Source: Fidelibacterota bacterium (GTDB lineage Bacteria; Pseudomonadota; Alphaproteobacteria; Rhodospirillales; Rhodospirillaceae). From it: 49,833 nt of DNA. Made by a program: the position numbers and the translations under genes. Below the pieces are notes generated by a model. It was not told the DNA's origin. It made no database searches and saw only the letters and a program-made list of their open reading frames with translations. This document shows positions 15,345 to 25,355 of the stretch, piece by piece (positions within the stretch are counted from its first letter, which is position 1; the number at the start of each line of letters is the position of its first letter). The stretch is taken from contig CANJBL010000017.1 in NCBI GenBank assembly GCA_947472795.1, positions 1 through 49,833 of the forward strand, in the 5' to 3' direction.

Positions 15345-15361
15345 TTGTGTCTGGACGCCCT

Positions 15362-15554
15362 CCTCTGTCGGAAAACCTGAAAGAATCACCGGGGGAAGAA
15401 AGTCCCGGCTTACATCTTCGGTGAGGCGGCAAAGCGGAGCCGCCTACTTTCCAGAGTACCAATCCCTCGCGGTCCGTGGGCCTGAGAGGTTCCGAGGGCG
15501 GTTGCTCCTTCGGCGTCAATCCTTAGCGGTTAGGACTGAACTCTTCCACGAGGG
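15362..15554 (-). promoter_or_regulatory. Tandem glycine riboswitch upstream of gcvT
   Basis: Read on the minus strand, two glycine aptamers follow one another. Aptamer 1 has P1 CCCTCG/CGAGGG, the core GCCGAAGGAGCAA, then CTCTCAGGC and GGACCG. Aptamer 2 has P1 CTCTG/CAGAG, CACCGAAGATGTAA and TTTCAGGTTTTCCGACAGAGG. The linker is short. The arrangement and its place directly before gcvT match the known glycine-activated riboswitch class, which turns on the cleavage system when glycine is plentiful. The second aptamer departs from consensus in the core (GATGTAA, TTTCAGG). The region 15555-15626 upstream should contain the promoter; TTGACC is seen on the minus strand near 15597, with no convincing -10. 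Confidence 0.92.
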
Positions 15555-15626
15555 TATGCGGTAGGGGCGGAGTGTGGCCTGAGTCGGCGTTCGCGGTCAA
15601 TGACGCAACACTATCGGAATCTTTTT

Positions 15627-22210: not shown

Positions 22211-22289
22211 CTAGTACCGCCGATTAGAAGTTCCAGCACTGAATGTTTCGACATGCACGTCAGGAACTTCTGACCGAAAGCGGTACTAG
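22211..22289 (+). repeat. CTAG-ended nested palindrome A (thrC upstream)
   Basis: Outer perfect 10-bp stem CTAGTACCGC/GCGGTACTAG, an asymmetric internal loop (6 and 9 bases), then an inner perfect 8-bp stem GAAGTTCC/GGAACTTC and a 28-base apical loop with its own small stem (TGT-TTCG-ACA). It lies in the leader of thrC. Same plan as palindromes B, C and D, with different arm sequences. Confidence 0.8.
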
Positions 22290-22300
22290 ATTCAAATACT

Positions 22301-22380
22301 TACTAGTGCTCTTTGGTTTCCGAAATGCGTCGTGCGGATATTTGCCGCGAATCATGCATTTCGGAAACCGGGCACTAGTA
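22301..22380 (+). repeat. CTAG-ended nested palindrome B
   Basis: Outer perfect 9-bp stem TACTAGTGC/GCACTAGTA, a short unpaired step, then an inner perfect 14-bp stem GGTTTCCGAAATGC/GCATTTCGGAAACC and a 27-base apical loop containing GCGG/CCGC. It starts 11 bases after palindrome A. Its left arm aligns with that of D over CTAG(T/C)G and CTTTG(G/A)TT. The remainder of the gap up to 22633 holds no gene that I can see. Confidence 0.8.
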
Positions 22381-22633
22381 CGGCAGCCCCACCACGCATC
22401 AACAGGCGCAGCAGCGGGTTAAGACGCGGAAAACCGCCATTTCTTACACGGCGTCCAGCAATCCTGTGGATAACCCGCTTCTTTTGCGACTCTTTTTTGA
22501 AATCTTAAGTTGCTGGTGACGAATCCCATTACATCCGCCGCGCGTATCGCTACCTTCCCGTCAGCATCGAAGATGCAGTGCAACAAGGCCTCCCGGATCA
22601 ATCAAGAGAGGGGGCCTGTTGGGGACCCTGACA

Positions 22634-24103
22634 ATGAACCAAGTCACCGTGCCGATCGCGCCCAGCAGCCGTGGCCTAGACCTCTCCACCTCCAGCATCA
22701 TGGGGCGGATGCGTTATGCGGGCGCGCTCGACATCGCCTTTCAGCCCATCGTCGATATCCACACGGGCCGCGTCTTCGGCTTCGAGGCCCTGACCCGCAA
22801 CGTGGAGTCTCTGGGCTTCACCTCGCCCACGGAATTCTTCGACCGCTGCCACGACGACGGCCAGTTGGAAGCGGTGGAGGAATATGTCCTCACCCAGGCC
22901 TTCGACAAATTTGTCCGCATCGAGGGTCATAAGAACTTAAAGCTCTTCGTGAACCTGGACAGCCGCAACATCGTGGCGGGACCAAAGACCGGGCGCGTCA
23001 TCGCAGCCTTGCGCGACCGTTACGAACTCACCAACGCCAACCTCGCTCTAGAAGTCTCCGAGCGCCACGAACTGAGCGAGAACGCCGGCTTGCCCGCGCT
23101 GCTCGCGTTGCGCCGCCAGTTCGGCAGTTTGACATTGGATGACTTCGGCTCAGGCCACGCCAATCTTCAGCTTTTCTATCATATGGAGCCGTCGATACTG
23201 AAACTCGACCGCTTCATCATCTCCTCCATCGGTTCAGATCCGAAAAAGGTCGTGTTCCTGCAGTACATCGTCCGCATGGCGCACCTCCTGGGCAGCCTCG
23301 TCGTGGCCGAAGGCGTAGAAACGCCGCAGGAATACTACGTCTGCCGCGAGCTGGGCTGCGATCTGGTGCAAGGCTATGCGGTGGCGCGTCCCACCACGGC
23401 CTTGACCGAGCTCGAGCTCAGCTACGCCAACATCGCGAGCCTCAGGGGTCAGGACCGCCGCAAGGTCGAATCAGATGTCACGCTGATCATGGGGCAGCTC
23501 GACATGACCGATCCCATCCGCATCAACCAGGACATCATGGAAGTCTTCGAGCGCTTCAAGATCGAGCGCGAACGCACCTTCTTCCCGGTGGTGGATCAGG
23601 TGGGCTTTCCCGTGGGCCTCATCCACGAGCGCGACCTGAAGGTCATCATCTATTCCATGTATGGGCGCGAACTCTTGCGCAACCCTCGCCGCTCGGGGTC
23701 CACCACATTGGCGACTTTTGTAAAGCCCTGCTCCGTCGCCAACGTCAATGCGTCGCCCGAGAAGATCCTTGAGATATTCTCCGCGCAGCCCGAGTCCGAA
23801 GGCGTGCTGATCGTGCGTGAAAGTCAGTACGGCGGCTTTCTGCACGCGCGCTCGCTGCTGAAAATCATCAACGAAAAAAGCCTTCAGCTGGCCCGCGACC
23901 AGAATCCATTGACCAGGCTTCCCGGCAACATCCTGATCCAGGATTATCTCGCCGAGGCCGTTTCCGATGCGTCATCGGCATATCAGTTTGCCTATCTCGA
24001 TTTCGACTACTTCAAGCCGTTCAACGACAAGTTCGGTTTGTTGAGGCGACGTTTCGGTTATTTTCGAGGGCTGCGAGCTTGGCATGGGGGCACTATGCCC
24101 TGA
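22634..24103 (+). CDS. EAL-CBS protein with truncated GGDEF domain
   Basis: The N-terminal EAL domain (about 30-265) looks able to hydrolyse cyclic di-GMP: Glu51 in FGFEALTR, NLDSRN, EVSERHE, DDFGSGHANL, LKLDRF, AEGVE and VQGYAVARP are all present. Two CBS-like segments follow (about 285-410). A GGDEF domain begins at QNPLTRLPGN and reaches YLDFDYFKPFNDKFG, then the reading continues into unrelated sequence (LLRRRFGYFRGL) and stops. The GGDEF active-site motif is missing. In full-length relatives the GGDEF domain continues for another 100 or more residues, so the 3' part was probably lost in a rearrangement near 24035. Start is ATG 22634. It is flanked on both sides by CTAG-ended palindromes. 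Confidence 0.88.
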   Translation: MNQVTVPIAPSSRGLDLSTSSIMGRMRYAGALDIAFQPIVDIHTGRVFGFEALTRNVESLGFTSPTEFFDRCHDDGQLEAVEEYVLTQAFDKFVRIEGHKNLKLFVNLDSRNIVAGPKTGRVIAALRDRYELTNANLALEVSERHELSENAGLPALLALRRQFGSLTLDDFGSGHANLQLFYHMEPSILKLDRFIISSIGSDPKKVVFLQYIVRMAHLLGSLVVAEGVETPQEYYVCRELGCDLVQGYAVARPTTALTELELSYANIASLRGQDRRKVESDVTLIMGQLDMTDPIRINQDIMEVFERFKIERERTFFPVVDQVGFPVGLIHERDLKVIIYSMYGRELLRNPRRSGSTTLATFVKPCSVANVNASPEKILEIFSAQPESEGVLIVRESQYGGFLHARSLLKIINEKSLQLARDQNPLTRLPGNILIQDYLAEAVSDASSAYQFAYLDFDYFKPFNDKFGLLRRRFGYFRGLRAWHGGTMP

Positions 24104-24171
24104 CTCGGCAGGGGAGGACAACGAGGCCCCTTTTGTCTCCTAGGTGTGCCGCCAGCCCCCAAATCCCAACC

Positions 24172-24249
24172 CTAGTGGAGCCGATTTGACATTCGCCACG
24201 GGGGCGCCCCAAAACCTGGGCGCGAATGTCAAATCGTAAGCTCCACTAG
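24172..24249 (+). repeat. CTAG-ended nested palindrome C
   Basis: Outer perfect 9-bp stem CTAGTGGAG/CTCCACTAG, unpaired 2 and 5 bases, inner perfect 14-bp stem GATTTGACATTCGC/GCGAATGTCAAATC, and a 25-base apical loop with GGGCGCCC. Inner arm is close to that of D. It follows the broken end of the EAL gene; 24104-24171 shows no gene. Confidence 0.82.
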
Positions 24250-24261
24250 ATTTATAGATTT

Positions 24262-24336
24262 CTAGCGGTCCTTTGATTCGAACATTCGCAGCTAGCCCCC
24301 AGAACTGGTAGGCAAATGTTCGAATCGGACCGCTAG
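24262..24336 (+). repeat. CTAG-ended nested palindrome D
   Basis: Outer perfect 10-bp stem CTAGCGGTCC/GGACCGCTAG, inner 12-bp stem GATTCGAACATT/AATGTTCGAATC, and an apical loop with CCAG-AA-CTGG. It starts 12 bases after C. The right-hand CTAG supplies the stop codon of the convergent glycosyltransferase gene. Confidence 0.82.
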
Positions 24337-25355
24337 CGGGTGAGGCTCTCAAAAACTTCGCGGTACCGGTTCACAACGGTTTTTTCCGAAAATTCACGGG
24401 CGACGCGCACCTCGCCGCCCGCCATCAACCGCTTCCCCAAACCCTCATCCCGAATCACGGCATTCACCGCCGCCGCTAAAGCGCCCACGTCACCCACGGG
24501 CGCCTTCAGGCCATCGACACCGTCCTCGATGAGGAAATCCGGTCCCTGAGCCGCCGCCGCAATGACCGGGACACCATAAGTCCAGGCATTGACCACCACG
24601 TTTCCAAAGGGCTCATGGCGCGAAGGTACCAGGCACACGTCGGCCGCCCGCAGCAATGCGGCACGATCATCGCGCCATCCCAGAAAACGCACGCGGTTTT
24701 CCACCTTGAGGTCGGCAGCGAGGTTCTTGAGGTGCCGCTCCAAGGGTCCCTCGCCCGCGATCCACAAGTACGCACCCGGAATCGCCGGCAACGCTTTCAA
24801 AGCCACGTCGATTCCCTTGGCTTCGTGCAGGCGTGCGAGGATCAGCAGCACCTTGGCGTCCGCGGGTGTATCGAGTTCACCCCGCGCGATGGCCGGTTCC
24901 GCATCCGTGGGACAGAAATTGGGAATGTAGTGCACGTCGTTCGCAGACCAGCCTTCGCGGACGACGTAATCAACAATATCAGGCGTGTTGCAGATGAGCG
25001 TCTTGCAGCGACGATAATACTTGAGCCCGTAATATCCGCCGAGGCGCCCCACATTCACCCAAGGTCCCTTGGGCAAAATGCGACAAGCACGATTCATCCA
25101 GCCCATGATGATGTCGGGGTTCTCGGTTGCCGCCACCTTGCGCAGTTTCCAGGGCGTGACGAGATCGAGCGGCCCGCCAAAGACCATGGTGCTGACGCGC
25201 GCTCCCGCCGCGGACAACAAGGCCGCGCGCATGGGATAAGGTCTGATGACACATGCCTGGTCGACACCCGATCGCTGCAAAGCGCGCACGAGGTCCTCGT
25301 AGAACACCTCGGCGCCGCCATGTACGCCGCTGGCCATGACTTGAAGAACCCGCAC
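24333..25355 (-). CDS. GT4-family glycosyltransferase (GT-B fold)
   Basis: The N-terminal half shows MASGVHGGAEVFYEDLVRAL, the glycine-rich acceptor-side motif of GT4 enzymes. The C-terminal half shows ILARLHEAKGIDVALKAL, WIAGEGPLERHLKNLA, VRFLGWRDDRAALLRAADV and the nucleotide-sugar EX7E region SRHEPFGNVVVNAWTYGVP. Length (340) is normal. The enzyme probably builds LPS or another surface glycan on the cytoplasmic side; the sugar is unknown. It is divergent from the acyltransferase gene next door, an envelope gene. The stop codon lies in palindrome D. Confidence 0.92.
   Translation of the reverse strand: MRVLQVMASGVHGGAEVFYEDLVRALQRSGVDQACVIRPYPMRAALLSAAGARVSTMVFGGPLDLVTPWKLRKVAATENPDIIMGWMNRACRILPKGPWVNVGRLGGYYGLKYYRRCKTLICNTPDIVDYVVREGWSANDVHYIPNFCPTDAEPAIARGELDTPADAKVLLILARLHEAKGIDVALKALPAIPGAYLWIAGEGPLERHLKNLAADLKVENRVRFLGWRDDRAALLRAADVCLVPSRHEPFGNVVVNAWTYGVPVIAAAAQGPDFLIEDGVDGLKAPVGDVGALAAAVNAVIRDEGLGKRLMAGGEVRVAREFSEKTVVNRYREVFESLTR

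What the first reader, a model, noticed from the sequence alone, without database searches (positions are those of the whole stretch)
22211..24336. Four nested palindromes with the same plan but different arms, all ended by CTAG
Palindromes A (22211-22289), B (22301-22380), C (24172-24249) and D (24262-24336) each have a perfect outer stem of 9-10 bp that begins at CTAG, an asymmetric unpaired step, a perfect or near-perfect inner stem of 8-14 bp, and a 22-28 base apical loop with its own mini-stem. Arm sequences differ but both sides of each arm have changed together, so pairing is kept (as in selection or in repair by gene conversion). B and D align along the left arms, and C and D share the inner arm (GATTTGACATTCGC vs GATTCGAACATTCGC), so they look related. 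They occur as two close pairs (11 and 12 bases apart) on both sides of one gene. Elements mobilised by hairpin-recognising transposases of the REP/IS200-605 kind are one explanation, but this is inference and no transposase is visible here.
Basis: partly seen in the sequence, partly recalled or inferred. Interest (0 to 1): 0.75.

Follow-up and report, generated by a model that had tools for sequence, protein, structure and literature searches.

The report
Paired-hairpin jumping DNA in Alphaproteobacteria
The four palindromes are two small gene-less jumping elements, each made of two hairpins, that insert at CTAG and carry end signals like those of the IS630 family of mobile DNA; what is unusual is the two-hairpin design and the way both sides of each hairpin keep changing together.

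Summary
A+B and C+D are each one ~166-bp bipartite element. C+D has 13 places in this genome, occurs in 9 of 19 genomes of the genus and widely in Alphaproteobacteria. A+B is a second family with the same plan; a structural scan found four. Each element reads N-TA-[G...unit 1...CTAG-linker-CTAG...unit 2...C]-TA-N. Foot variation, nested insertions and empty sites (clear at 3 of 15 sites) indicate insertion at CTAG/CTAA with TA duplicated. The arms resemble the ends of IS630-family insertion sequences (8.93/20 mean matches, 4.96 permuted; 0 of 2000 permutations), and those ISs also sit in C-TA-G (17 of 17). None of 29 Y1-transposase loci of the genus carries such a unit. No IS630 gene was found in this genome, and no IS with identical ends. 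Arms are ~98% conserved, loops 64-72%. Stems co-vary, even at target-derived feet, and same-site comparisons indicate that this followed insertion; template-switch repair is the likeliest cause. The plan matches a review's description of CIR repeats (Caulobacter, Brucella), whose mobility it left open; their sequences could not be compared.

The parts
22211..22378 (+). Element 1 (A+B family), bipartite, CTAG to CTAG; mobile part by the TA model is G22214 to C22375
22211..22289 (+). Palindrome A = unit 1 of element 1
   Evidence: (z -5.4)
22290..22302 (+). A+T-rich linker of element 1
22303..22378 (+). Palindrome B = unit 2 of element 1 (folded as 22301-22380)
   Evidence: (z -8.6)
24172..24336 (+). 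Element 2 (C+D family), bipartite, CTAG to CTAG; mobile part by the TA model is G24175 to C24333
24172..24249 (+). Palindrome C = unit 1 of element 2
   Evidence: z -8.3
24250..24261 (+). A+T-rich linker of element 2
24262..24336 (+). Palindrome D = unit 2 of element 2, with two compensated changes private to it in this genome (T-A to C-G in the outer stem, T-A to G-C in the inner stem)
24333..24335 (-). Stop codon (TAG) of the glycosyltransferase ORF 24333-25355, formed by the right foot of element 2

Best explanation
[quoted passage not shown] An IS630-family transposase supplied in trans would bind the outer ends (TA-GTGGAGYGGATTTGACATTCGC on the left, TA-GTGGTCCGATTCTAACATTCGC on the right for the C+D family), cut the element out and insert it at the TA of a CTAG (sometimes CTAA), duplicating TA. 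Shown here by sequence: many copies, target, TA anatomy, end similarity, nested insertion, some empty sites. Inferred: which transposase acts, and that any acts today. Each unit looks like two of these end repeats set face to face around a loop. The two inward-facing copies carry about 3 extra bases (AAA/TTT) between outer and inner box and the outward-facing ones do not, which I read as blocking use of the inner copies (inference). After insertion the arms, including the target-derived TA feet, are kept complementary by in-place correction, most likely replicative template switching between the arms (inference), which would account for conserved arms beside variable loops.
For: (2) Element edge: over 177 copies the outermost base of the left foot differs from C in 20 and the inner G in 3; at the right foot the last base differs from G in 13 and the C in 1 (33 of 37, p about 1e-6), as N-TA-[G...C]-TA-N predicts. 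(3) Empty sites: CTAG at the L243 site in L330 and L339; at the L258 site CTAG in L336 and GTAG in L311, L318, L329; at the L253 site CTAA in the closest relative L309 (94%), where the filled copy has CTGG on the left and CCAA on the right. (4) Nested insertions of three families at CTAG joints in one genome, G025. (5) IS630: 17 of 22 IS630 loci pass a test for TAGT...ACTA ends, 1122-1195 bp apart, and in 17 of 17 the base before TA is C and the base after TA is G; L357 and L358, outside that test's range, have TAGTGG ends. Without asking for TAGT, the best TA-bounded pair began with TAGT at both ends in 13 of 20 plasmid loci. MITE arms vs 34 IS ends: mean 8.93 of 20 positions beyond TAGT, permuted mean 4.96, 0 of 2000 permutations reach it. 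L358's transposase is IS630 (NF033545, 261 bits, cut-off 100; PF13358). (6) Covariation: 180 cells changed on both sides to another Watson-Crick pair, 14 changed on both sides without pairing, about 55 double changes expected. (7) Changes after insertion: the same-site pair L236/L252 differs by three paired double changes; at the L253 and L258 sites the TA seen in relatives has become, in the filled copy, the complement of the inner foot.
Against: No IS630 (PF13358) match in 7 of 10 genomes searched, including this one and the copy-rich G025 and G019; this genome and the genus relatives are in many contigs, so gaps are possible. No autonomous element with the exact C+D ends was found; in G025 only 100 of 176 end matches were listed. 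The best single IS end matches 13-14 of 20, so the cognate IS is not identified; the A+B left arm reaches only 10 of 20, which 88 of 7498 control words reach; in a small second control (124 words) four arms are equalled by 1-2 words. Of 15 sites searched, 9 gave no clear NTAN-like empty site; at the three sites counted as one base from CTAG (L244, L251, L223) only some relatives show it, and for L244 the two most similar relatives do not. One covarying position splits subfamilies and supplies 75 of the 180 double changes (expected 36.8), and 307 cells changed on one side only, so part of the covariation is shared descent and correction is incomplete.
Confidence: 0.85

Rival explanations
1. Single-stranded hairpin transposon of the IS200/IS605 or REP/RAYT kind: the inner foot acts as a guide that pairs with the left-flank tetranucleotide (target), so guide and target covary.
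For: The left-flank foot and the inner foot of unit 1 covary (13 and 21 paired double changes at the two TA positions, none unpaired), and hairpins with an asymmetric step resemble such ends.
Against: Feet changed after insertion: L236/L252 at one site; at the L253 and L258 sites relatives show TA where the filled copies do not. At the CTAA site the right-most base follows the target (one site). 0 of 29 Y1 loci of the genus hold a unit and Y1 presence does not track the family. Arms resemble IS630 ends.
Confidence: 0.04
2. DDE element with a 4-bp CTAG duplication (IS5-type), not TA.
For: A P. syringae MITE, MITEPsy1, duplicates CTAG or YTAA (PMC3189936, passages). CTAG targets alone cannot separate a 4-bp from a 2-bp duplication.
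Against: Asymmetric foot variation and the CTAA site with G on the left and A on the right put the element edge inside CTAG. Of 8 PF01609 (IS4/IS5-type) loci, from 4 of 6 genomes searched, the best TAGT...ACTA pair over an IS-sized span matched 13 of 26 (L383, 1358 bp), which is weak. Only this one IS4/IS5-type Pfam family was tried.
Confidence: 0.06
3. Fixed functional sites (regulatory or chromosome-organising, possibly linked to GANTC methylation) conserved by selection, mobility being ancient.
For: Inner arms 98% conserved across families of bacteria with loops at 64-72%; GANTC in 157 of 177 left and 153 of 177 right arms of unit 2.
Against: Of 41 loci compared, flanks aligned across genomes at one site only, L018/L038 (these species differ enough that some shared sites may be missed); empty sites in related genomes; nested bursts in G025; GANTC in 0 of 177 left and 1 of 177 right arms of unit 1.
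Confidence: 0.05

Closest known systems
CIR repeats of Caulobacter and Brucella (Chen and Shapiro 2003, not held; seen only through passages of the reviews PMC2229807, and PMC10969869)
   Same: Two long inverted repeats joined by a linker, TA at the termini, GANTC sites, spread over Alphaproteobacteria, mechanism of mobility left open in the review
   Different: Described as ~110 bp with GANTC at or in a terminal loop; here ~166 bp with GANTC mostly in the arms of unit 2. Sequences could not be compared
RUP of Streptococcus pneumoniae / IS630-Spn1 (PMC2229807, passages)
   Same: MITE whose ends resemble those of an IS630 element and that inserts at TA
   Different: 107 bp, and no two-arm plan in the passages seen
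IS630-family insertion sequences such as ISAr1, ISMex18 and the Nitrobacter element at L358
   Same: TAGT...ACTA ends, arm sequence, C-TA-G target
   Different: Carry a transposase gene, about 1.15 kb; none of the 17 tested had an exact 9-base internal inverted copy of its end within 120 bases (one search printed none)
Bru-RS1/Bru-RS2 of Brucella (PMC10800456 and PMC2267715, passages) and RIME of Rhizobium (recalled)
   Same: Palindromic intergenic repeats in Alphaproteobacteria
   Different: 103-106 bp (Bru-RS); sequences not compared here
REP / REPIN / RAYT (PMC3733652, abstract and passages)
   Same: Palindromes that can occur as inverted pairs
   Different: 20-40 bp, tagged GTAG or CGTC; GTAG types tied to Y1 transposases

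Membership tests
IS630-derived MITE | Short, dispersed, multi-copy, without a transposase gene | tested here: met
   ~166 bp, 13 places in this genome; 184 copies parsed, 177 kept
IS630-derived MITE | TA target duplication, CTAG preference | tested here: met
   NTAN empty sites at 3 of 15 sites, words one base from CTAG in some relatives at 3 more, 9 unclear
IS630-derived MITE | Ends homologous to the terminal repeats of IS630-family elements | tested here: met
   0 of 2000 permutations reach the observed mean; no IS with identical ends found; A+B left arm weak on its own
IS630-derived MITE | Mobilised in trans by an IS630 transposase | not testable with these tools
   No IS630 gene found in this genome; needs an experiment
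REP / RAYT | Copies flank or accompany a RAYT gene | tested here: not met
   0 of 29 Y1 loci of the genus hold a unit; 9 of 9 control loci do
REP / RAYT | 20-40 bp palindrome with GTAG or CGTC tag | tested here: not met
   75-79 bp units with CTAG feet; definition
IS200/IS605-type element | Left flank is the target; right end is carried by the element | tested here: inconclusive
   At site L253 the last base of the right foot follows the target CTAA, against it, but this is one site; with a TA or CTA right end the two modes look alike
CIR repeat | Two inverted-repeat arms joined by a linker, TA at ends | tested here: met
   description
CIR repeat | About 110 bp with GANTC at or in a terminal loop | tested here: not met
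   ~166 bp; GANTC mostly in the arms of unit 2
CIR repeat | Sequence similarity to CIR1-CIR4 | not testable with these tools
   Paper not held

The most novel reading that the evidence does not exclude
The hairpin units themselves, not just the outer repeats, are the functional form: a class of IS630-type elements in which each end is a self-complementary double repeat maintained as a foldable unit (for example a cruciform or single-strand substrate, or a decoy for the transposase), with inner copies switched off by a 3-base insert. Several families sharing this plan would make up a major mobile class of Alphaproteobacteria that includes CIR.
Probability: 0.2. Interest if true: 0.75.

Novelty: new variant of a known kind. 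Interest (0 to 1): 0.45.

Why it matters
It offers a mobility mechanism (IS630-type, TA in CTAG) for two-armed palindromic repeats of Alphaproteobacteria, a question that the 2007 review left open for CIR. The target-derived feet give a natural record of palindrome repair in chromosomes: bases that did not travel with the element have come to pair with bases that did. It also shows MITEs of several families nesting in each other's CTAG joints.

Tried and rejected
REP/RAYT and the guide-target reading were tested first and dropped. My first look at Y1 flanks covered 11 of 29 loci with fixed windows that miss the true flanks of minus-strand genes; one search replaces it. I held the guide-target reading for some time because the left flank covaries with the inner foot over about 4 bases; same-site pairs and empty sites turned it down. 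A search of one IS4/IS5-type family for matching ends found nothing convincing. Loop inversion as a sign of template switching was looked for and not found: 10 of 354 loops scored better inverted and no pair of copies passed the threshold. An autonomous element with the exact C+D ends was not seen in G025 (100 of 176 places listed); spans of 315-332 bp there turned out to be nested MITEs. Papers holding the arm sequences: (four 12-13-base strings) listed 12 papers, by title one on E. coli strain genes and the rest on human or animal cells; none opened. Br-REP1/2 of Bradyrhizobium (PMC5082802, outline and passages) have different printed sequences, compared by eye. My first background for the IS-end comparison was filtered by score and so circular; one search uses unfiltered backgrounds and a permutation. 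Ascertainment: the genome-contig scan demanded the right arm of unit 2, so its conservation is inflated; the other three arms were not selected by the scan, though the parser allows at most 3 substitutions per inner arm. Of 184 parsed copies 7 were dropped for poor outer stems. Of the 8 pairs, L264/L280 is not one site (their shared flanks belong to another element family), leaving 7.

Full report
WHAT IS THERE. The window holds two small elements. Element 1 is A + 13-bp linker + B (22211-22378). Element 2 is C + 12-bp linker + D (24172-24336). Each palindrome folds better as a DNA strand than all 200 of its dinucleotide shuffles. Element 1 lies between the threonine synthase ORF (whose longest reading overlaps A; the conserved domain starts only at residue 32) and an EAL-domain ORF. 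Element 2 lies between that EAL ORF and a convergent glycosyltransferase ORF whose stop codon TAG is supplied by the element's right foot.

COPIES. Element 2 has 13 places in this genome and element 1 has 4, one of them a half; both counts include the window's own (alignments). In the genus, 9 of 19 genomes have element 2 at E <= 0.001 and 3 of 19 have element 1. Contig lengths suggest that those 3 belong to genomes of this very genus (L131 and L164 match G012, L171 matches G008), so the titles look mistaken (inference). With one Bradyrhizobium-type copy as query, all 7 of 7 named-record genomes searched have matches, 16 to 113 each, lower bounds where only 40 candidates were scored. Two viral contigs match the pattern; 5 plasmid records and no phage record match that copy.

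ANATOMY. I parsed 184 full copies and kept 177. Consensus: CTAG-TGGAGY-GGATTTGACATTCGC-loop-GCGAATGTCAAATCC-AAA-RCTCCA-CTAG-linker-CTAG-TGGTCC-TTT-GATTCTAACATTCGC-loop-GCGAATGTTAGAATC-GGACCA-CTAG. The four inner arms are each about 98% identical on average, loops 64% and 72%, linker 71%; outer boxes 89-92% in unit 1 and 98% in unit 2. The spacer between outer and inner box, as the parser counts it, is 2 bases in 171 of 177 and 1 base in 176 of 177 at the outer ends, but 5 in 145 of 177 and 4 in 152 of 177 on the inner sides. So outer and inner copies of the same repeat differ by about three bases. A structural scan that knows only the plan found 107 distinct bipartite elements in four families (91, 9, 4, 3) in the loci held at that time; reversed and block-shuffled controls gave no bipartite element, the reversed one 2 single units. 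A further family, Y, appears nested in G025.

INSERTION. If the element is G...C between two TA, the outermost bases of the feet belong to the target and should vary, and the inner ones should not. At the left foot the outermost base differs from C in 20 copies and the inner G in 3; at the right foot the last base differs in 13 and the C in 1 (tests). For 15 copies, 8 from G019 (Afipia massiliensis by L118's title) and 7 from G023 (title not seen; flanks up to 97% like G019), I searched six genomes with the joined flanks. Site L243 is empty with a single CTAG in L330 and L339 (L344 and L352 are less clear). Site L258 is empty with CTAG in L336 and GTAG in L311, L318 and L329. Site L253 is empty with CTAA in L309, the closest relative (94%), while the filled copy has CTGG on the left and CCAA on the right; two more distant relatives show no TA there. 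Three more sites have words one base from CTAG in some relatives (L244: CGAG in L324, but not in the two more similar ones; L251: CCAG in L303, CTGG in L307; L223: CCAG in L317, CTTG in L331). Nine sites gave no clear word. In G025, families sit inside one another at CTAG joints (L363, L364, L369, a triple nest in L366; L365 has extra bases at the joint).

THE ENZYME. PF13358 (IS630 transposase) searches in ten genomes hit three. At L358 (the genome behind L126, Nitrobacter winogradskyi) the gene sits in a 1150-bp element with ends TAGTGGATGGAATCTAACACTTGG and TAGTGGATCGCGTCTGACATTTGAAT in a C-TA-G target. The protein is IS630 by NCBIfam and Pfam. It has relatives in 635 plasmid records. I examined 22 IS630 loci: 20 plasmid stretches out of those records (19 alphaproteobacterial, 1 P. 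syringae) plus L357 and L358. Seventeen passed the end test (at least 12 of 24 matching, TAGT required); L357 and L358 lay outside that test's range but have TAGTGG ends; 3 did not pass. Without requiring TAGT, 13 of the 20 plasmid loci still gave TAGT at both ends. In all 17 the base before TA is C and after it G. MITE arms agree with the 34 IS ends at 8.93 of 20 positions beyond TAGT against 4.96 when positions are permuted (highest of 2000 permutations 8.01). For six of ten arms the best IS end scores 13 or 14 and is reached by at most 1 of 7498 control words; X_R and Y_L score 13 (2 of 7498 each), AB_R 12 (3), AB_L only 10 (88). In a second, small control set of 124 words from the IS loci, X_L, X_R, F4_R and AB_L are equalled by 1-2 words. 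This genome has no PF13358 match, so the local partner is missing or lost, or lies in an assembly gap.

WHY ARMS CHANGE TOGETHER. Over 50 stem pairs in 177 copies, 180 cells changed on both sides to another Watson-Crick pair, 14 changed on both sides without pairing, 307 changed on one side; about 55 double changes were expected from the column make-up, two thirds of that from one subfamily position. Inheritance alone does not explain the feet: by the TA model the left TA is target DNA and does not travel, yet at the two TA positions of unit 1 there are 13 and 21 paired double changes (2.9 and 4.6 expected) and none unpaired, beside 22 changes in the left foot only and 13 in the inner foot only; unit 2 shows 7 and 4 paired and 2 unpaired. 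In the same-site pair L236/L252 three pairs differ on both sides, beside two unpaired stem differences. At L253 and L258 the TA seen in relatives has become the complement of the inner feet. In-place correction between arms is the simplest reading; replicative template switching is known to do this (PMC8794818, abstract and introduction). Selection for pairing is not excluded. Single-sided differences at other same-site pairs (L210/L235, L132/L232) show that correction is not immediate. I found no inverted loops, another expected trace of template switching.

WHAT IT IS NOT. The only Y1 gene of the genome scores as a REP-associated type, just below that model's cut-off, with its own palindromes; 0 of 29 Y1 loci of the genus hold one of the present units, and the family's distribution does not follow Y1.

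KNOWN OR NEW. Passages of the 2007 review (PMC2229807) describe CIR repeats of Caulobacter and Brucella as two long inverted repeats joined by a linker, with TA at the termini and GANTC sites, mechanism of mobility open; and RUP of pneumococcus as a MITE of an IS630 element. The present elements have CIR's plan and, by my reading, RUP's mechanism, with a different length and GANTC placement from CIR. In vitro work on ISY100 shows TA duplication and 24-bp end repeats for the IS630 family (PMC2170065, abstract and passages). That I found no name for this family rests over one open library; subscription papers, the CIR, RIME and Bru-RS originals among them, were not readable.

Noticed in passing
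window 22619-24103: The EAL-domain protein ends in a partial GGDEF domain (profile positions 5-51 of 161, below cut-off); the ORF stops about 70 bp before element 2, so the gene looks 3'-truncated.
   Followed up: no
window 15361-15558, minus strand: Tandem glycine riboswitch aptamers (Rfam RF00504).
   Followed up: no
G000:C2:163376-163702 (L017, L026): REP-type tyrosine transposase gene; 13 of 29 Y1 loci of the genus hold GTACCTGGTAC-like repeats: a separate REP system.
   Followed up: partly
L361-L369 (G025): Nests of at least three MITE families at CTAG joints; also 73-74 bp single units of unit-1 type (L361, L362) that lack the inner AAA and are symmetric.
   Followed up: partly
L110, L138, L200, L221, L222: Single hybrid units with the left arm of unit 1 and the right arm of unit 2, as expected from deletion between the shared GCGAATGT repeats; L221 and L222 are on viral contigs.
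   Followed up: no
   Followed up: no
G000:C1:347113-348339 (L025): A half A+B element and a full C+D element lie 1 kb apart around an ORF, as in the window.
   Followed up: no
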